Assembly (NCBI GenBank): GCA_012729635.1
Contig: JAAYCT010000016.1
Span: forward strand, 1 to 64,000
Direction: 5' to 3'
Length of the DNA stretch: 64,000 nucleotides
DNA from: Clostridiaceae bacterium
Lineage (GTDB): Bacteria; Bacillota; Clostridia; Saccharofermentanales; Saccharofermentanaceae
Positions 1-7,444 of the stretch are shown here, one piece after another (position 1 is the first letter of the stretch; every line of letters starts with the position of its first letter). Under the pieces are notes generated by a model, which worked only from the letters and a program-made list of their open reading frames with translations, searched no databases and had not been told where the DNA came from. The translations under genes were made by a program, and so were the position numbers.

Positions 1-14
1 TCGTATAATTCTTT

Positions 15-330
15 TTAAGTCCGGAAAACTGTCTTTCCGGACCGGTTGATTTTGCAAACGTCCTGTTAGAAAATGGTCTTGAAGGCCGTTTGAGGACTAG
101 TTCTGTTTCTCCTAGTAGGATCCCTGCGGATTACTTCTAACAAAGTCCGTTCCCCTGGCCTTATGTTTAGCTTCGAACCGCTGGTTGTTTGTCTGTTACC
201 GTGTTCCTTTGGCAGGAGGTTATCGTGCAGTCGGCAACAGATGTATATTCTCATGGCGAGGGTGTCGACGCGTAAGTGTCTCAGGGCGTTTGCTTTCAAT
301 CGACCTTCAATTTTATGTGAAGGGAGGTGA
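15..330 (+). ncRNA. Putative IS110 bridge RNA region
   Basis: Members of the IS110 family make a structured bridge RNA from the non-coding end next to the transposase; it pairs with target and donor DNA. A perfect TATAAT lies at 4-9. A 9-bp hairpin follows at 19-42 (GTCCGGAAA/TTTCCGGAC). Then come a domain closed by GGACT (94-98) and AGTCC (144-148), and a second closed by CTGTTACCG (193-201) and CGGCAACAG (232-240). A 5' stem-loop followed by two loop domains is the known bridge RNA layout. No -35 is visible inside the element, which would fit a promoter completed only when the ends join in a circle. The folds were judged by eye and the 3' end is unknown. Confidence 0.35.
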
Positions 331-335
331 AACAT

Positions 336-1568
336 TTGAAAGACACAATTTTCGTCGGCATTGATGTAAGCCAGACAACAAACACCGTTCATGTCATGAA
401 CTCGTCCGGGAGCAAGTTGTGGCATCAGACCTTTTACAATTCCTTGGACGGCAGTCACGAATTCATGGATCGATTGTTGGAAACGCAAAAGAAAGAGGAT
501 GCCGCATTTTTGAGTTTTGGGCTGGAAGCCACCGGTTGCTACGGCGACCTGCTCTCCATATTCTTGCGGGAAACGGATTTGATTCCGCGAGCCTGCAAGT
601 CTGTGCGAATACTCAACCCCCGGCAAGTCCATCGATTTAAGGGCTCCTATGCGGAGCTTCCGAAGACCGATGACATCGATGCTTTTGTTATCGCCGACAG
701 CCTCAGATTTGGCCGTATGGGCTTAAAGGGTACCGTTGTGGAAGAAAAGTATCTGGCACTACAAAAACTGACACGTTCTCGCTTTCAGGTTGCCAAAGAC
801 CTGTCCGGCGAGAAGAATCGCTATCTGCAATCTCTTTTTCTCAAATTCTCCGCAATGGCTCAGGACTCGCCCTTCTCAAACAACTTCGGTGAGACTGCTT
901 TGCAGTTGATCACTGCGTTTGAAAGCGTTGATCAGATTGCCTATACATCCATCGAAGACCTGGCGATCTTCCTAAATCAACACGGCAAAGGTCACTTCGT
1001 TGATCCGGAAAGCTTAGCCAATGAAATTCAAAAGGCAGCGCGCTCTTCCTATCGTCTGCCCAAGGCGGTCGCGGATTCCGTCAATCAGGTTCTGGCCATG
1101 CAGACACAAACCATCCGTTTCTACGAGCAACAACTTCGGGAGTACGACAAGTTGATTCAAGATTACATGACCGGTATCCCCAACACCCTTACATCGGTCA
1201 AAGGCATTGGTCCGGTCTATGCGGCAGGGATTATCGCCGAGGTGGGCGATGTTACCCGCTTCAAGGATCAGGCGGCTCTTGCAAACTATGCCGGTCTTTC
1301 CTGGTCTCGACACCAGTCCGGCAAATTTGAAGCCGAGCAAACGCACTTGATCCATTCCGGAAACCGCTATCTCCGTTATTACCTCATAGAGGCCACGAAT
1401 TCGGTTCGGAAGCACGATCCCGAACTACGGCGCTTCTATGCTCTGAAGTACAAGGAGACCGCCAAAACCAAAGGGAAACGCGCACTCGTCTTATCTGCCA
1501 GAAAATTTGTCCGCGTTGTCTACGCCCTGCTGCGTGACAACCGCATTTACATCCCTCGGGAAGACTAG
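336..1568 (+). CDS. IS110 family transposase (recombinase)
   Basis: A 410-residue DEDD recombinase that moves the element by a bridge-RNA-guided reaction. The N-terminal RuvC-like part carries the expected acidic residues in GIDVSQTT, GLEATGCYGD and KTDDIDAF. The C-terminal IS116/IS110/IS902 domain has VKGIGPVYAAGIIAEVGD, then ANYAGLSWSRHQSG with the catalytic serine region, and GNRYLRYYLIEA. I chose the TTG at 336 because AGGGAGGTG at 321-329 is well spaced from it; the GTG at 327 overlaps that ribosome binding site. The frame is open and of normal family length, so the element may still be active. Confidence 0.93.
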   Translation: MKDTIFVGIDVSQTTNTVHVMNSSGSKLWHQTFYNSLDGSHEFMDRLLETQKKEDAAFLSFGLEATGCYGDLLSIFLRETDLIPRACKSVRILNPRQVHRFKGSYAELPKTDDIDAFVIADSLRFGRMGLKGTVVEEKYLALQKLTRSRFQVAKDLSGEKNRYLQSLFLKFSAMAQDSPFSNNFGETALQLITAFESVDQIAYTSIEDLAIFLNQHGKGHFVDPESLANEIQKAARSSYRLPKAVADSVNQVLAMQTQTIRFYEQQLREYDKLIQDYMTGIPNTLTSVKGIGPVYAAGIIAEVGDVTRFKDQAALANYAGLSWSRHQSGKFEAEQTHLIHSGNRYLRYYLIEATNSVRKHDPELRRFYALKYKETAKTKGKRALVLSARKFVRVVYALLRDNRIYIPRED

Positions 1569-1742
1569 AATATAGCCTTCCGCAAGTAACCCGGTCTTTG
1601 TATCGTTGAGGCAGGGTTTGTTTGCATTGTCCTCTTTTCTCGCGTCCGATTCGAAACTATTCAATTTTCTAGGTGCATATATGTAAATAGTCTATTGACT
1701 AATTACCGCTGGACTTCCAAAATCTGTAATTATTTTGATTAT

Positions 1743-1796
1743 ATGATAAAATACAAAGAAATCAAGACAGAAGATCAATGTTTGTTTACATGCTAA
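1743..1796 (+). CDS. Very short ORF upstream of the exporter, doubtful
   Basis: A 17-residue frame reading MIKYKEIKTEDQCLFTC ends 16 bases before the exporter gene. Charged residues first and a Cys-containing tail would suit a small precursor peptide for the neighbouring radical SAM enzyme. No Shine-Dalgarno sequence precedes the ATG and the length is within chance expectation. A poor promoter-like TTGACT lies at 1695-1700. Confidence 0.12.
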   Translation: MIKYKEIKTEDQCLFTC

Positions 1797-1812
1797 TACT
1801 GAAGGAAGGCCT

Positions 1813-3447
1813 ATGATCCCTTATCTGTATAAAGAAAACCGATTACGTTTTTTTCTTCACATAATGCTATGTCTCTTCTTTACGATATTTGAAGTTGGAT
1901 TGGCATACATTATGATGCTATCTGTCGATTATGCTCTGAATGGAGATTTATCGGATGCGAAATATTACATTGTCGGTTTTCTCGCCTATGTTGTGACTTT
2001 TTTTGCGATTGATTTTTTTACACAGAAATCGCGGTTAGGGTTACTGCGGCGAGCGCGAATGGAACTGAGAAGAGATGTCTTGCGTGATATATGCAAATTA
2101 AGTACTACGCAGTTTCACCGGAAAAATGTCGGAGAGTGGATTTCCATTCTGATTAAAGATATCGATATTATCGAAAGCTCATATTTCAAATCATTCTTTA
2201 ATCTATTTACGAACATTCTGCAGTTTTCGATCAGTATCGTGCTAATGATGATCATCTCGCCATATTTGTGTTTGTTTATTTTTGTGATCGGTCTGGTTCA
2301 ATTGCTGATCCCCAAAATTATGGGTCCCAAACTCGGAATGAAGAAAAAACTCCTATCTGATGCGGTTTCTGCTTTCACTGTTGAAGCCTCCGAGAAATTG
2401 CATGCCTTTGACTTGCTAAAATCTTTTCATCTGACAGCGAATGTGTTTGAAAAAGTGAATCACAGCAGTAAATCCATGGAAGAACGCCAATTTCATTCTA
2501 ACTTTTTCTCGGCGCTGATCAATTTGCTATCCTTTACATTCGGCCAGATTCTTTATGTCGGAACCTATTTTTTCGGTGCGATTTTGATCATTTTCGGTCA
2601 AATGACTTTGCCTATGATGATCGCCGCGTCTCAGCTGATCGTATATATTACCTATCCGCTTATTAGTCTGAATGACGACCTCGCTGAGTTCAGATCGGCG
2701 AAAGAAATCATTCGAAAATTGGTCCGTTTGAAGGTTGGTTCTGATGATCAAACTCATTCCATTCAGAAAAGATCTCTGGAAGATTGTTTTATTTTTGATG
2801 ATGTATGTTTCTCATATGGCGACAAATCAATAATACGGGACATTCGCTTTAAGATGCATAAAAACAGAAAATACCTACTAAGGGGTGCAAGTGGTATAGG
2901 GAAATCAACGATTCTGAAACTCATAACACGAGAAATACAACCAACGTCGGGAAGAATATTGATTGACGAAACGGACATTTCGCAGATCTCAAAGGAAGAC
3001 TATGTAAAAATCATCTCTATCAATTCACAGAATCTGTTCCTGTTCAACGCCTCCCTACGAGATAACATTACAATATTTCAGGATTCCTTCACCACGGAAC
3101 AATTAACTGAAGCCGTTCAATTTGCCGGTCTTTCCTTATCTCTTGATAAACGTAACGGATCCTATGATCTTTTGGATTTTATAATCGGGGAAAACGGCGT
3201 CAATCTGTCCGGAGGAGAAAAACAACGGATCGCTCTGGCTCGAATGTATCTTTATCAGAGTGATGTGATGTTGTTTGATGAAAGCTTTTCCAATCTGGAT
3301 AAAGATTCACGTAATGACATCATGAGGAGACTTCTGAAATGGGATAACAAGACGATCGTTTATATATCACACCAAATCGAAGAAGAACTCGCATCCGAAT
3401 TTGATAGCATCCTTGAACTTACAGAACAGGGAGTGGTTCTCTCCTGA
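1813..3447 (+). CDS. ABC exporter, fused membrane and ATPase domains
   Basis: A 544-residue half-size exporter. Residues 1-310 hold about six membrane segments of the type I exporter fold. The ATPase domain has Walker A GASGIGKST, the ABC signature LSGGEKQR, Walker B VMLFDESFSNLD and switch histidine ISHQ. No N-terminal C39 peptidase domain is present, so it should not itself cleave a leader peptide. The ribosome binding site is AAGGAAGG just before ATG. Only 71 bases separate it from the radical SAM maturase, pointing to export of a modified peptide, though the substrate is not visible. Its low GC matches the maturase and differs from the rest of the window, suggesting joint acquisition. Confidence 0.85.
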   Translation: MIPYLYKENRLRFFLHIMLCLFFTIFEVGLAYIMMLSVDYALNGDLSDAKYYIVGFLAYVVTFFAIDFFTQKSRLGLLRRARMELRRDVLRDICKLSTTQFHRKNVGEWISILIKDIDIIESSYFKSFFNLFTNILQFSISIVLMMIISPYLCLFIFVIGLVQLLIPKIMGPKLGMKKKLLSDAVSAFTVEASEKLHAFDLLKSFHLTANVFEKVNHSSKSMEERQFHSNFFSALINLLSFTFGQILYVGTYFFGAILIIFGQMTLPMMIAASQLIVYITYPLISLNDDLAEFRSAKEIIRKLVRLKVGSDDQTHSIQKRSLEDCFIFDDVCFSYGDKSIIRDIRFKMHKNRKYLLRGASGIGKSTILKLITREIQPTSGRILIDETDISQISKEDYVKIISINSQNLFLFNASLRDNITIFQDSFTTEQLTEAVQFAGLSLSLDKRNGSYDLLDFIIGENGVNLSGGEKQRIALARMYLYQSDVMLFDESFSNLDKDSRNDIMRRLLKWDNKTIVYISHQIEEELASEFDSILELTEQGVVLS

Positions 3448-3518
3448 AGGATAGAAATCATTATCAATGATAGTAAACGTGAAAAGCCATAATATTCTTT
3501 CAAAGGAGAACACGAATA

Positions 3519-4796
3519 GTGCATGATAAGGATAGTAAAGAAAGAACTGATTATTATATTTCTAAATATATTGAAGTCGTAAAAAATAAGAATGACTATA
3601 TTCTATTCAACAAAATGAACGGATCTATTGTCAGTTTCAATGAAGATAGTGTTGTTTTTACAGACGATTCGTACTTCTTGCGCGGGATCAATCAATCGGA
3701 GTGTGATTTTCTTAAGAATTATGGATTCTTTGATTCAGAGGATTTGATAAGGGCTGAGATTAAAAAATTGAACGAAGGAACCTTCATATCTGATGATGTT
3801 CATATTACTATTAGTGTTACAGAATCGTGTAATTTAGATTGCTCATACTGTTACCAGAAAAATTGGAATAAAAATGATTCAATTGATAAGAGCACATATA
3901 AGAACATGCTCATAGATTATGTCTATTTTGTTGTAGAAACGTTTAGAAACAAGAAGGCTCAGCTGGATATTCATTTTATTGGTGGAGAACCACTTTGTGA
4001 GAGAAGATTAATTGAAGAACTAACCCAAGAAATTCTTCAAATCAGAGAGATGCGAGCGTATTCAAAAATTGAGTTTAATTTTCGAATGGATACCAACTTG
4101 ACGCTAATAGATGAGAGGTTTATCCGCTCTTTTCCCAATCTGGAAATATGCACCGCTTTGTCGATGCCGGAGGATCATAATGCTCTGAGAAGTAATTCCT
4201 ATAACGATGTGATAAAGAAACTTCTGGAAATCAAGGATGTTTTCCTTGAGGAGAACTATCATTTATCAATAAGATATAATGTGCATTCCGGTAATCAAAA
4301 TGATCTGGATAAATTTTTGGAGTTATTTAGTCACTATTCAATTGTGTGTGAAATTGAGGTTCAAAACTTGATAAATGAGGGACAAACCTACTTTATGAAT
4401 TCCTTATCCGATGATCGTTTCGAAGAAAAATATGTTAATGAGTATATTTCAATTCTACATAGATTCGGATACGAAACAGATATTTTGCCTAAAAGTGGAA
4501 TCGGAAGGCATTGTTTCGGTCAAAATGTGCTTTCATGCAAATTTTACTCAAATGGTCAAAGAGTCTTATGCGATGCTATTCCGAAAAGTGATGGATTTTC
4601 AAATCAGCACTTTACGGTTCCATTCATTGAAAAACTACCGGAGAAATGTATCAATTGCTATGATTTTCCCTATTGTGGAGGGGAAAAGCCTTGTGAAAAG
4701 TCAAAGTGTAATGGTATATATTCGAAAAAAGCAATAAACCGAGCTAAAATTAAACAATACGCAGAGATGTGTGAATTGGTTTTTTCAAAAGAGTAG
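3519..4796 (+). CDS. Radical SAM/SPASM peptide maturase
   Basis: A 425-residue enzyme of the type that modifies ribosomal peptides (RiPPs). Residues 1-90 form a small domain resembling the leader-recognition region of peptide maturases. The radical SAM core starts at the CNLDCSYC cluster motif (about residue 106) and continues with a GGEPL motif. A C-terminal SPASM-type region supplies cysteines for auxiliary clusters in CINCYDFPYCGGEKPC and nearby positions. The start is GTG after AAAGGAG. The gene is very AT-rich and follows the exporter in the same direction. No precursor, protease or second modifying enzyme is evident nearby. The chemistry could be a thioether, a carbon-carbon bond or another change and cannot be told from this sequence. 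Confidence 0.85.
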   Translation: MHDKDSKERTDYYISKYIEVVKNKNDYILFNKMNGSIVSFNEDSVVFTDDSYFLRGINQSECDFLKNYGFFDSEDLIRAEIKKLNEGTFISDDVHITISVTESCNLDCSYCYQKNWNKNDSIDKSTYKNMLIDYVYFVVETFRNKKAQLDIHFIGGEPLCERRLIEELTQEILQIREMRAYSKIEFNFRMDTNLTLIDERFIRSFPNLEICTALSMPEDHNALRSNSYNDVIKKLLEIKDVFLEENYHLSIRYNVHSGNQNDLDKFLELFSHYSIVCEIEVQNLINEGQTYFMNSLSDDRFEEKYVNEYISILHRFGYETDILPKSGIGRHCFGQNVLSCKFYSNGQRVLCDAIPKSDGFSNQHFTVPFIEKLPEKCINCYDFPYCGGEKPCEKSKCNGIYSKKAINRAKIKQYAEMCELVFSKE

Positions 4797-4815
4797 AGAG
4801 AGCGATTGTTTGAAT

Positions 4816-4929: not shown

Positions 4930-5811
4930 ATGATCCAAACGGTGAATTTCAAAAAATACTACGGGAAGAACCGGGGCGTCGAGGACTTGACGCTTCATGT
5001 GAAGGCCGGGGAGATCTACGGCTTTGTCGGGCCGAACGGCGCCGGCAAGTCGACGACGATCCGGTCGCTTTTGGGTATGCTCCGGCCGACCTCGGGGGAG
5101 CTTTCTATTTTCGGGCGTCCGTGCACCGACCGGAATCTTTCGGAGGTCAAAGACCGCATCGGATATTTGCCGTCGGAAAACCACTACTACGACCGGTTGC
5201 GCGTGAAAGAGCTTTTCGAGTACGCGGCCGGATATCGGAAGAAGGATTGCTCGGGGAAGATCCGGGAGTTGTGCGAGATCCTCGCTCTGGATACGAGCCG
5301 CCTGATCGAAGACTTGTCCTTCGGGAATAAGAAGAAGGTCGGTATTGTCCTTTCGATGATGCACGAGCCGGAACTCCTGGTCCTCGACGAGCCGACGGTC
5401 GGCCTGGATCCGCTGATGCAAAATCACTTCTATGACCTGCTTCGCAAAGAAAAGTCGCGCGGGGCGACGGTGTTTTTCTCGTCGCATATCCTTTCGGAAG
5501 TTCAGCGCCTGTGTGATCGGGTCGGTATCATCAAAGAGGGCCGGCTGATCGACGAAAAGGACGTTAAAGAGCTTCGTCAGACGCAGTATAAGAAGGTCTT
5601 TATCAAACTGATCAACGGCACGCCGTTCCGGCCGGGTGAGGCCGAGTTGACGGAATTGACCGAAAAAAGCGGCGAGGTGCGTTTTATCTATCAGGGGAAT
5701 GCCGGGGATCTGACAAGGCTTCTGGCGAGTAACGAGATCGCGGATTTCTCCGTGACCGAGCCGGACTTGGAAGAGGTGTTCATGCACTATTATCGGGAGG
5801 AAGAGAAATGA
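4930..5811 (+). CDS. ABC transporter ATP-binding protein (ABC-2 type)
   Basis: A 293-residue cytoplasmic ATPase that powers the membrane protein encoded immediately downstream. It shows Walker A GPNGAGKST, a signature LSFGNKKKV of the LSxGxxKK form common in ABC-2 and NatA-like ATPases, Walker B LLVLDEPTVGLD and the switch histidine FSSHI. An extra domain of about 80 residues follows the ATPase core, as in many ABC-2 ATPases. The start ATG lies after GAGGTGATCTC. The stop overlaps the next start by four bases, so the two are translationally coupled. The substrate is not evident; drug or peptide efflux is usual for TetR-controlled systems of this kind. Confidence 0.9.
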   Translation: MIQTVNFKKYYGKNRGVEDLTLHVKAGEIYGFVGPNGAGKSTTIRSLLGMLRPTSGELSIFGRPCTDRNLSEVKDRIGYLPSENHYYDRLRVKELFEYAAGYRKKDCSGKIRELCEILALDTSRLIEDLSFGNKKKVGIVLSMMHEPELLVLDEPTVGLDPLMQNHFYDLLRKEKSRGATVFFSSHILSEVQRLCDRVGIIKEGRLIDEKDVKELRQTQYKKVFIKLINGTPFRPGEAELTELTEKSGEVRFIYQGNAGDLTRLLASNEIADFSVTEPDLEEVFMHYYREEEK

Positions 5812-6596
5812 GACTTTTTGCTTTTGAAATGAAAAGCGCCTGGAAGTCGCTTCTGGTATGGAATATTTGCATCGTCGGTTTCATGGTGTTCGCGATGTCG
5901 ATGTTTCCCTCCTTTGCGGATATGGGCAGCTCCCTCGACGATATGATGGCGGGTTTTTCGCCGGAGATGGTCAAGGCATTCCGCTTTGACGTGATCGATT
6001 TTACGAACCCGATGGACTACATCTGCTATATGTTCCAGTATTTTCTGATCGCGATGGGCTCGCTCGCGATACTTACCGGGGGCAACATCATTTCCAAGGA
6101 GGAGTCGGACCGTACGATCGACTTCCTGTACGCCCAACCGGTGACCCGCGGGCATATCGCCGCAAGTAAGATCGCCGCGCTTTTCGCGCAGATGACCGTC
6201 ACCGCGGTCCTGTTTTTTCTGGGAACGTGGGGGATTCTGGAGATCGTAGCGGACGAATATGATTTTAACGGACTGATCCTTCTGTGCGTCGGAATCGTGC
6301 TTTTCATGTTCCTTTTTGCGTCGGTCGGTCTCTTGCTCGGGCACTTTATTGTGAAGCCGGCCCGCAGACTGCCGTTCGCGCTCGGGATCGTCTTCGTCTT
6401 TTTCTTTTTGGATATCATGGGCAAGATCAGCGAGGATGTCGAGGCGATGCTGCACATCACGCCGTATCACTGGTTCGACGGAATCGAGGTCCTCGAAAAC
6501 GGCTTCCCGCCGGCGTATCTTGCGGTTGCGATCGCGATCATCGTCATCGGCCCGGGCCTGACCGGAATCCTGTATACGCGAAAAGACTTCACGTAA
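5808..6596 (+). CDS. ABC-2 type membrane permease
   Basis: A 262-residue integral membrane protein with about six hydrophobic segments. The first segment is near residues 17-38, and a large soluble loop (about 40-75) follows it. The motif SKEESDRTIDFLYAQPVTRGHIAASK matches the ABC-2 permease region that couples to the ATPase, with sequence of the type EESDRTIDFL-QPVTR. It overlaps the ATPase gene by four bases, so the pair forms one transporter. It is probably an exporter of a hydrophobic compound, but no substrate marker is visible. Confidence 0.85.
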   Translation: MRLFAFEMKSAWKSLLVWNICIVGFMVFAMSMFPSFADMGSSLDDMMAGFSPEMVKAFRFDVIDFTNPMDYICYMFQYFLIAMGSLAILTGGNIISKEESDRTIDFLYAQPVTRGHIAASKIAALFAQMTVTAVLFFLGTWGILEIVADEYDFNGLILLCVGIVLFMFLFASVGLLLGHFIVKPARRLPFALGIVFVFFFLDIMGKISEDVEAMLHITPYHWFDGIEVLENGFPPAYLAVAIAIIVIGPGLTGILYTRKDFT

Positions 6597-6660
6597 GGTC
6601 CGGGGAGGAGATCGGGAGTCGCGAGGAACGCGGTAAGCAAGCGACGGTTTTTTAGAGACG

Positions 6661-6718
6661 ATCGGGTGGCGAGCGGTTTTCGAGAAACAATCGGGTGGCG
6701 AGCCGCTTTTCGAAAATC
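6661..6718 (+). repeat. Two tandem 29-bp repeats between permease and TetR gene
   Basis: Two adjacent copies start at 6661 and 6690, both beginning ATCGGGTGGCGAGC and ending in TTTTCGA-rich sequence. They differ at a few positions. Further partial echoes lie at 6610-6650 and 6738-6775 (CGAAAAGC, GTTTTTCGA). The 206-base spacer has no convincing gene. The copies could form alternative stems in the mRNA (GAGCGG with CCGC), perhaps lowering regulator expression relative to the transporter; that role is inference. Confidence 0.5.
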
Positions 6719-6802
6719 GGTACGGGAGCAGTGTGGATACTCGAAAAGCACGCCCGGTGAGGACGCAGTTTTTCGACAATCAACAAGAGGAGAGCAGTCG
6801 GC

Positions 6803-7444
6803 ATGTGTGAGAAGTTCCTGGCGATCAGCGCCGAGAAACAGAGGGTAATCCTTCAAGCCGCGCTGTCCGAATTTTCCGAACGCGGCTACCATAAAGCCAA
6901 TACCAACACGATCTGCGAGAAGGCCGGGATCTCCAAGGGCCTTCTCTTCCATTATTTCGGCAGTAAGAAGGCGCTGTACCTGTACCTTCTGGACGATGTG
7001 ATGAAGGAGATGACCCGGAGGCTCTATGAGTACGTCGGTCGGGAGAAGACGGACCTTTTCGATCTGATCACCGCGACTTCGCTGGCGAAAATGCGCGTCG
7101 GAGCGGAGATGCCGGAGGGCTATCGTCTGATTTATGAGGCTTTTCTGGCGACGCCGGACGAGCTTTCCGAGGAGATGAAGCGGAGCTTCCGAAACACCTA
7201 TACCGAACAAAGAGCGCAGGTGCTCCTTCTCGTGGACGAGAGCAAATTCAAGCCCTCGGTCAGCAAGGAGCGGGCGGTCGATCTTCTTCTGGCTTGCACC
7301 GAGGGGATCTTCAACCGGTACTATGAGCTCTACCGGCACATGACACCGGAGGAGGCCTTGCCGCATATGGACTCCATAAGGCAGGAATTGATCGAGAGTC
7401 TCCTTCTTCTGAAATCGGCGTTCTACAAAGAAGAGTATCTTTAG
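6803..7444 (+). CDS. TetR/AcrR family transcriptional regulator
   Basis: A 213-residue repressor-type protein. The N-terminal helix-turn-helix spans about residues 14-60, with the typical ILQAALSEFSERGYHKANTN and ISKGLLFHYFGSKKALY signatures. The remaining helical domain would bind a ligand and form dimers. GAGGAGA precedes the ATG by nine bases. It is the last gene of the ABC-2 transporter operon and probably binds the 20-bp palindrome at that operon's promoter, giving autoregulation relieved by the exported compound. The link to the operator is inference from position and symmetry. Confidence 0.9.
   Translation: MCEKFLAISAEKQRVILQAALSEFSERGYHKANTNTICEKAGISKGLLFHYFGSKKALYLYLLDDVMKEMTRRLYEYVGREKTDLFDLITATSLAKMRVGAEMPEGYRLIYEAFLATPDELSEEMKRSFRNTYTEQRAQVLLLVDESKFKPSVSKERAVDLLLACTEGIFNRYYELYRHMTPEEALPHMDSIRQELIESLLLLKSAFYKEEYL

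What the first reader, a model, noticed from the sequence alone, without database searches (positions are those of the whole stretch)
1813..4796. AT-rich radical SAM/SPASM and ABC exporter cassette without a recognisable precursor
The pair has the make-up of a RiPP pathway, but no normal precursor gene lies before, between or after the two genes. The base composition differs from the surroundings and an IS110 element borders it, so the cassette was probably acquired and may have lost its peptide gene, or the peptide is very short or coded elsewhere.
Basis: partly seen in the sequence, partly recalled or inferred. Interest (0 to 1): 0.6.

Follow-up and report, generated by a model that had tools for sequence, protein, structure and literature searches.

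The report
Peptide-modifying cassette cut off by IS110
A foreign pair of genes for changing and exporting a small peptide really does lack its peptide gene here, most likely because a jumping element sits where relatives carry that gene and the assembly stops inside the element, so this is an incomplete copy of a rare but recognisable kind of system.

Summary
In detail: an intact AT-rich exporter gene (1813-3447) and radical SAM gene (3519-4796), no normal precursor in the window. The lack is explained by position, not by new chemistry. Six related loci found by homology and a motif scan all carry a 25-32 aa Cys ORF with a good ribosome site. In the nearest relative the order is precursor, hairpin, exporter, radical SAM. 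In the window an IS110 ends 96 bases before the exporter, about where that relative's precursor ends. At least four copies of this IS110 break the assembly, and the left flank of the window's copy is not in the bin. So the precursor probably lies, or lay, beyond the IS110. The only local candidate, a 17-codon ORF (1743-1796, MIKYKEIKTEDQCLFTC), weakly resembles the nearest relative's precursor but has no ribosome site. The enzyme belongs to an uncharacterised subfamily (C-x2-C-x5-C-GG-x3-C), in outline like Rgg-linked RaS-RiPP systems; the product's chemistry is unknown. In passing: the IS110 seems to insert at Shine-Dalgarno sequences.

The parts
1..1716 (+). IS110 element; contig C11 begins at or very near its left end
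   Evidence: bases 1591/1592-1716 are identical at the ends of contigs C36, C39 and C37, which then diverge; bases 1-127 are shared with C26 and C32 ends
327..1568 (+). IS110 transposase, 413 aa
   Evidence: NF033542 237 bits over cut-off 140; Pfam PF01548 and PF02371
1695..1723 (+). possible hybrid promoter: TTGACT at the IS end, 17 bases, CAAAAT in the flank, pointing at the exporter
   Evidence: consensus scan, 9 of 12; such matches are as common as chance in this region (12 found, 11.7 expected)
1717..1812 (+). 96 bases of upstream region left between IS110 and exporter; no hairpin, no ORF with a ribosome site
   Evidence: (z 0.63)
1738..1765 (-). possible promoter pointing left into the IS110 (TTGATT-16-TATAAT), as if for a divergent gene beyond it
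   Evidence: consensus scan, 10 of 12; same caveat as above
1743..1796 (+). 17-codon ORF MIKYKEIKTEDQCLFTC, weak precursor candidate
   Evidence: no Shine-Dalgarno pairing (0.6 kcal/mol); 1.5% of shuffles give an ATG ORF of 12+ codons with 2+ Cys; local similarity to the L168 precursor reached by 0.6% of shuffles
1801..1809 (+). Shine-Dalgarno of the exporter, GAAGGAAGG
   Evidence: -8.3 kcal/mol with the anti-SD
1813..3447 (+). ABC exporter, 544 aa, fused membrane and ATPase domains, no N-terminal peptidase domain found
   Evidence: Pfam ABC_membrane 14-283 and ABC_tran 342-492; L168 exporter 41% identical
3502..3508 (+). Shine-Dalgarno of the radical SAM gene, AAAGGAG
   Evidence: -8.9 kcal/mol
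3519..4796 (+). radical SAM peptide maturase, 425 aa, CxxxCxxC at 104-111, auxiliary Cys including C-x2-C-x5-C-GG-x3-C
   Evidence: Pfam Radical_SAM; alignment A3 with four relatives at 26-38% identity, 53 invariant columns

Best explanation
This is a horizontally acquired radical SAM RiPP cassette of the order precursor - exporter - radical SAM, from an uncharacterised subfamily. An IS110 inserted just upstream of the exporter, at about the place where the nearest relative's precursor gene ends, so the precursor is separated from the two genes (or was lost with the original upstream part) and is not seen because the assembly breaks inside the repeated IS110. Expected working: a 25-32 aa peptide is made from its own promoter, bound through its N-terminal leader, cross-linked at or near Cys by the radical SAM enzyme, and exported by the ABC protein. 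Shown: intact enzyme and exporter with ribosome sites, IS position, missing left flank, precursor in all six related loci. Inferred: that the window's precursor was of the same kind, that it is or was left of the IS110, the leader binding, the kind of cross-link (thioether is a guess from Cys and from fold neighbours) and the export.
For: Related loci: a pattern scan of genome contigs gave 94 stretches; blastp of the window proteins against all 94 gave five loci of the subfamily (L133, L102, L130, L129, L168), and L010/L120 (Ezakiella) is a sixth. A short Cys ORF next to the enzyme was found in 6 of 6, with anti-SD pairing of -8.2 to -16.2 kcal/mol in 6 of 6; 9 of the 15 pairs of these peptides are more alike than 97% of shuffles. 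Nearest relative L168: precursor 2880-2966, hairpin (z -3.7), exporter from 3047; so 80 bases lie between precursor and exporter there, and 96 between IS and exporter in the window. A hairpin follows the precursor in 3 of the 4 loci folded and is absent from the window's 96 bases. IS110: six matches in the own genome, left ends only in C11, C26 and C32; C26+C36 are one copy, because congeneric G006 has the empty site; C32 (clpP, dnaK) and C37 (grpE, hrcA) fit as a second; C39 and the window's C11 have no left partner in the bin.
Against: The left flank of the window's copy was never seen, so a precursor there is inference. By analogy with C26 and C32, whose left flanks carry a leftward gene with its Shine-Dalgarno at the IS, the gene left of the IS would be divergent, which is not the orientation of the precursors in the six relatives; a regulator fits as well (RNPP-like next to L133, HTH plus TPR next to L130). 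Gene order varies among the relatives (precursor first, middle or last). The four intact relatives are only 26-38% identical over the full length; the closest, L168, is itself broken: exporter in two frames, radical SAM reduced to its C-terminal part.
Confidence: 0.55

Rival explanations
1. The 17-codon ORF at 1743-1796 is the precursor: a very short peptide with two Cys at its end, translated weakly from a transcript that starts at the IS end.
For: It is the only ORF of 12 or more codons closed inside the 96 bases; two Cys (1.5% of shuffles) and a Cys at the end (0.5%); IKYKEIKTE..C aligns with IEAKEASTE..C of the L168 precursor, reached by 0.6% of shuffles; same strand, just before the exporter.
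Against: No ribosome site, 0.6 kcal/mol, 96% of random window 20-mers pair at least as well, while 6 of 6 relatives' precursors and both window genes have one; shorter than the 25-32 aa of the relatives; no similarity to the other five precursors; the statistics were made after seeing the ORF, and L168 is one of six comparisons.
Confidence: 0.15
2. The precursor is gone for good and the pair is a remnant on its way to decay; the exporter may still serve as immunity or transport.
For: Decay occurs in this group: L168 keeps the precursor but has a broken exporter and a stub of the enzyme; L010 has five stops in the matched part of the enzyme. An IS110 borders the cassette.
Against: In the window both genes are fully open, the key Cys are in place and both have ribosome sites, which a long-dead pathway would not keep.
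Confidence: 0.2
3. The precursor is coded elsewhere in the genome and modified in trans.
For: The bin is not complete (96.65%) and one pattern cannot cover all precursors.
Against: The pattern for Met-[KR]-[IV]-[ILV] followed by Cys-[GA] gave 13 places in the own genome against 5 for the reversed control; the six that I read through had no ribosome site by eye, and one of them lies inside the radical SAM gene itself. All six relatives have the precursor beside the enzyme.
Confidence: 0.1

Closest known systems
Rgg-linked streptococcal RaS-RiPPs, in particular the CGx and CGG subfamilies
   Same: In outline: short precursor with a Cys-Gly motif (in most of the six relatives), a radical SAM enzyme, an exporter, and an RNPP-like or HTH-TPR regulator next to two of the six relatives. 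The review PMC13361665 (passages read) lists CGx and CGG as subfamilies with an rgg but no identified shp, function not characterised.
   Different: No sequence of those subfamilies was at hand, so kinship was not tested. In the window no precursor and no regulator are seen.
PapB ranthipeptide maturases (NF047865) and geopeptide maturases (TIGR04280)
   Same: Best NCBIfam matches of the window enzyme (67.6 and 62.0 bits) and among the best of the relatives.
   Different: Far below the curated cut-offs of 340 and 400; the match covers part of the protein only.
CteB, the SCIFF maturase (5why), and SuiB, the streptide maturase (5v1q)
   Same: Fold neighbours of the predicted model (ranks 1 and 5; the name CteB for 5why is recalled, the listing gives only the title on sactipeptide thioether formation).
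   Different: Model of low confidence (mean pLDDT 60, much of the C-terminal region under 50); TM-score about 0.43; identity 15-18%.

Membership tests
Radical SAM superfamily | CxxxCxxC in a Pfam Radical_SAM domain | tested here: met
   PF04055 37.8 bits over 29.5; C104, C108, C111 invariant in A3
SPASM proteins (PF13186) | match to the Pfam SPASM model | tested here: not met
   no match; the search of the own genome finds two other proteins and not this one
SPASM proteins (PF13186) | auxiliary cysteines C-x2-C-x5-C after the barrel (feature recalled) | tested here: met
   C377, C380, C386 with C332, C351, C392, C397 invariant in A3; spacing C-GG-x3-C in place of the C-x-GG-C of L006-L009 and L011-L014
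RaS-RiPP cassette | precursor gene next to the enzyme | tested here: not met
   absent from the window as far as it reaches; present in 6 of 6 related loci
RaS-RiPP cassette | exporter next to the enzyme | tested here: met
   ABC exporter 71 bases before the enzyme gene; homologous pair in L133, L130, L129 and, broken, L168; not seen in L102
Rgg-linked RaS-RiPP | Rgg/RNPP regulator | tested here: inconclusive
   HTH_3 plus RNPP_C (24.4 bits, under the 26.5 cut-off) next to L133, HTH_3 plus TPR next to L130; none in the window, whose left side is unassembled
PapB ranthipeptide maturases NF047865 | score over the curated cut-off | tested here: not met
   67.6 bits against 340
IS110 family | score over the curated cut-off of NF033542 | tested here: met
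   237.3 bits against 140

The most novel reading that the evidence does not exclude
The 17-codon ORF is a working minimal precursor: a peptide ending in CLFTC, made without a Shine-Dalgarno from a transcript started at the IS110 end, and turned as a whole into a small Cys-linked product, which would be a very short radical SAM RiPP precursor.
Probability: 0.1. Interest if true: 0.6.

Novelty: new variant of a known kind. Interest (0 to 1): 0.38.

Why it matters
The finding itself becomes ordinary: an interrupted copy, not a precursor-free pathway. What is left over is useful. A rare subfamily of radical SAM peptide maturases with an unusual cysteine spacing is now tied to a short precursor family that no Pfam or NCBIfam model matched, with one source (Pseudoflavonifractor sp. 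MSJ-30, L133, a record not marked as a MAG) in which enzyme, exporter, precursor and regulator are all open and can be tested. It also warns that 'orphan' maturases in fragmented assemblies can be artefacts of IS-broken contigs. The IS110 that seems to aim at Shine-Dalgarno sequences is a separate lead.

Tried and rejected
Protein searches of plasmids and phages gave only distant radical SAM proteins; DNA searches of both with 1717-4800 gave nothing. A draw from the phylum (398 genomes) gave no relative and a draw from the class (391) only the broken L005/L010. The family of that genome (130) gave L006-L009, which have the common C-x-GG-C spacing and were dropped from the subfamily. A profile search of 384 genomes of the order of L133 gave L133 alone. 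The stricter DNA pattern in viral contigs gave two stretches without a radical SAM gene. Of the 94 stretches, L186 (21% identity) and L109 (E 3e-5) also matched the enzyme by blastp, and a second, unlike enzyme in L130; they were left out of the subfamily; L186 has its own Cys-rich ORF upstream. In one search I had examined 80 of the 94 loci; one search covers all 94. Rfam gave nothing above its cut-off for 1-1900. The promoter scan is no better than chance in number, so both promoters named here are only possible ones. The idea that the window's left flank was C26 or C32 was rejected by pairing; the C32+C37 pairing rests on heat-shock operon order and is inferred.

The statistics on the 17-codon ORF were made after the ORF was seen.

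Full report
What is there. The window is contig C11 of its assembly from base 1. Bases 1-1716 are an IS110 element with its transposase at 327-1568. An ABC exporter gene follows at 1813-3447 and a radical SAM gene at 3519-4796, both intact and each with a ribosome site. This stretch has 36% G+C in a window of 50% and is its most AT-rich part. The genes after it (ABC ATPase, ABC-2 permease, TetR regulator) have a third-position G+C of 0.74. Within the family (115 genomes), the order (188) and a draw from the phylum (398) only the window's own genome has the enzyme at the thresholds used. So the cassette is probably acquired.

No normal precursor. The regions before, between and after the genes hold no short ORF with a ribosome site. 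One 17-codon ORF, MIKYKEIKTEDQCLFTC, ends 16 bases before the exporter.

Finding relatives. The enzyme is rare: no curated family claims it. Its last cysteines are spaced C-x2-C-x5-C-GG-x3-C, where L006-L009 and L011-L014 have C-x-GG-C. A DNA pattern for this spacing, run over the genome collection, matched 94 stretches. Comparing all 94 with the window proteins left five loci: L133 (Pseudoflavonifractor sp. MSJ-30, 37% identical over nearly the whole length), L102, L130, L129 (26-28%) and L168, whose enzyme is reduced to a C-terminal stub that is 61% identical and whose exporter is 41% identical but broken. L010/L120 (Ezakiella), found first, is a sixth, with a broken enzyme gene. That the two names are one record follows from the contig length of 70351 and the shared ORF; it also suggests that the window genome, of the same class, is a clostridium (inference).

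The precursor family. In 6 of 6 of these loci a short Cys ORF lies beside the enzyme: MKILVEASKIVHMSRGCAHGHDSKHDMDPFG (L133), MRIIVEAREVTPRGCGVGRFSSQRI (L130), MKIIRIEAKEASTEPMGCGQCHWAKQRD (L168), MVVVKKPIKSIKIVCGCGNGNWSSQCKKDQ (L102), MNIVKPSSQMMETRCGPYWSRQCSERFRGC (L129), MKVLVPPTVTNEEDWPNEFACGSCNGSKSDKS (L010). All pair well with the anti-SD, -8.2 to -16.2 kcal/mol. Where the precursor comes before another gene, a strong hairpin follows it in 3 of 4 (L168, L133, L130; not L102), as if the downstream genes were read at a lower level (the reading is inference). L133 has an RNPP-like regulator and L130 an HTH-TPR regulator upstream. L168 and L102 lie beside large serine recombinases. No Pfam or NCBIfam model matched the peptides (the L129 peptide was given to NCBIfam only).

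Why the window lacks it. In L168, the nearest relative, the order is precursor, hairpin, exporter, enzyme, with 80 bases between precursor and exporter. In the window 96 bases lie between the IS110 and the exporter. So the IS stands where the precursor would be expected to end. The IS is repeated: its right end recurs in contigs C36, C39 and C37 and its left end in C26 and C32. C26 and C36 belong together, because a congeneric genome (G006) has the uninterrupted site. C32 and C37 fit the order hrcA-grpE / clpP-dnaK (inferred). C39 and the window's contig have no left partner in the bin. The far side of the IS next to the exporter is therefore missing from the assembly, and the precursor with it if it was there. 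Against this: in C26 and C32 the gene at the left junction reads away from the IS, so the window's missing neighbour may be a divergent gene, such as a regulator, and not the precursor.

The 17-codon ORF. For it: two Cys at the end (1.5% and 0.5% of shuffles) and a weak likeness to the L168 peptide (0.6% of shuffles). Against it: no ribosome site at all (0.6 kcal/mol), no likeness to the other five peptides, and a test made after the fact. I rate it at 0.15.

Elsewhere in the genome. A pattern for the family's start and first Cys gave 13 places against 5 for the reversed control. I read six through; none had a ribosome site by eye, and one lies inside the radical SAM gene. This does not exclude a precursor of another form, and the bin is 96.65% complete.

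How it would work. By analogy with characterised radical SAM RiPP pathways (established knowledge, not tested here), the leader is bound by the N-terminal part of the enzyme, a cross-link is set at or near Cys, and the exporter sends the product out. In the predicted model the N-terminal part reads as three strands and two helices, as a leader-binding domain might, but the model is poor (mean pLDDT 60). Fold neighbours include peptide maturases (5why first, SuiB fifth). No peptidase domain was found in the exporter, so a separate protease would be needed if the leader is removed.

Closest known. A review of streptococcal RaS-RiPPs (PMC13361665, passages read) names CGx and CGG subfamilies, tied to Rgg regulators and not characterised. 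The present peptides resemble these in outline. No sequence of theirs was compared. PqqA is given as 29 aa in one species (PMC10906245, passages), so precursors of 25-32 aa are not unusual.

Verdict. The missing precursor is best explained by an IS110 insertion together with an assembly break, and the finding is a damaged, or only apparently damaged, copy of a rare radical SAM RiPP cassette of an uncharacterised subfamily.

Noticed in passing
window 1-1716; contigs C26, C32, C36, C37, C39 of the same genome: This IS110 seems to insert at Shine-Dalgarno sequences: both left flanks seen end in TCTCCT, the anti-sense of a ribosome site a few bases before the start of a leftward gene. The part of the IS before the transposase holds TGTTTCTCCTAGTAGGA around 108, a possible target-binding stretch of the bridge RNA. 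Two left flanks only. A search for papers with IS110, bridge RNA and Shine-Dalgarno (listing only) showed 12 of 30 titles, none about this.
   Followed up: partly
L241:1881-4001: The L130 genome has, 4 kb from the first, a second cassette with peptides rich in GCGC and another radical SAM enzyme; the profile search found nine matches in that genome.
   Followed up: no
L010:7204-9888: The Ezakiella locus has a class II lanthipeptide synthetase (DUF4135 plus LANC_like) near the broken radical SAM gene and its precursor.
   Followed up: no
L011, about 5640-5940, minus strand: A more distant locus carries two short peptides in tandem, MRIIRRPSKPEDTILDCGVGGVTNCCPGTSPVRGK and MKIIRRPSKLEFGMACPTGGVRNCCPGSGPIQEGD (the second from a TTG start), before its radical SAM and exporter genes.
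   Followed up: no
L012:1376-1801 and L013:4560-5036: Two more distant loci have a lipoprotein-like gene just before the radical SAM gene and Cys peptides in the gap before the exporter.
   Followed up: no
window 4930-7444: DrrA-type ABC ATPase, ABC-2 permease and TetR regulator of host composition follow the cassette; L010 also has an ABC ATPase and two membrane genes after its enzyme, perhaps by chance.
   Followed up: no
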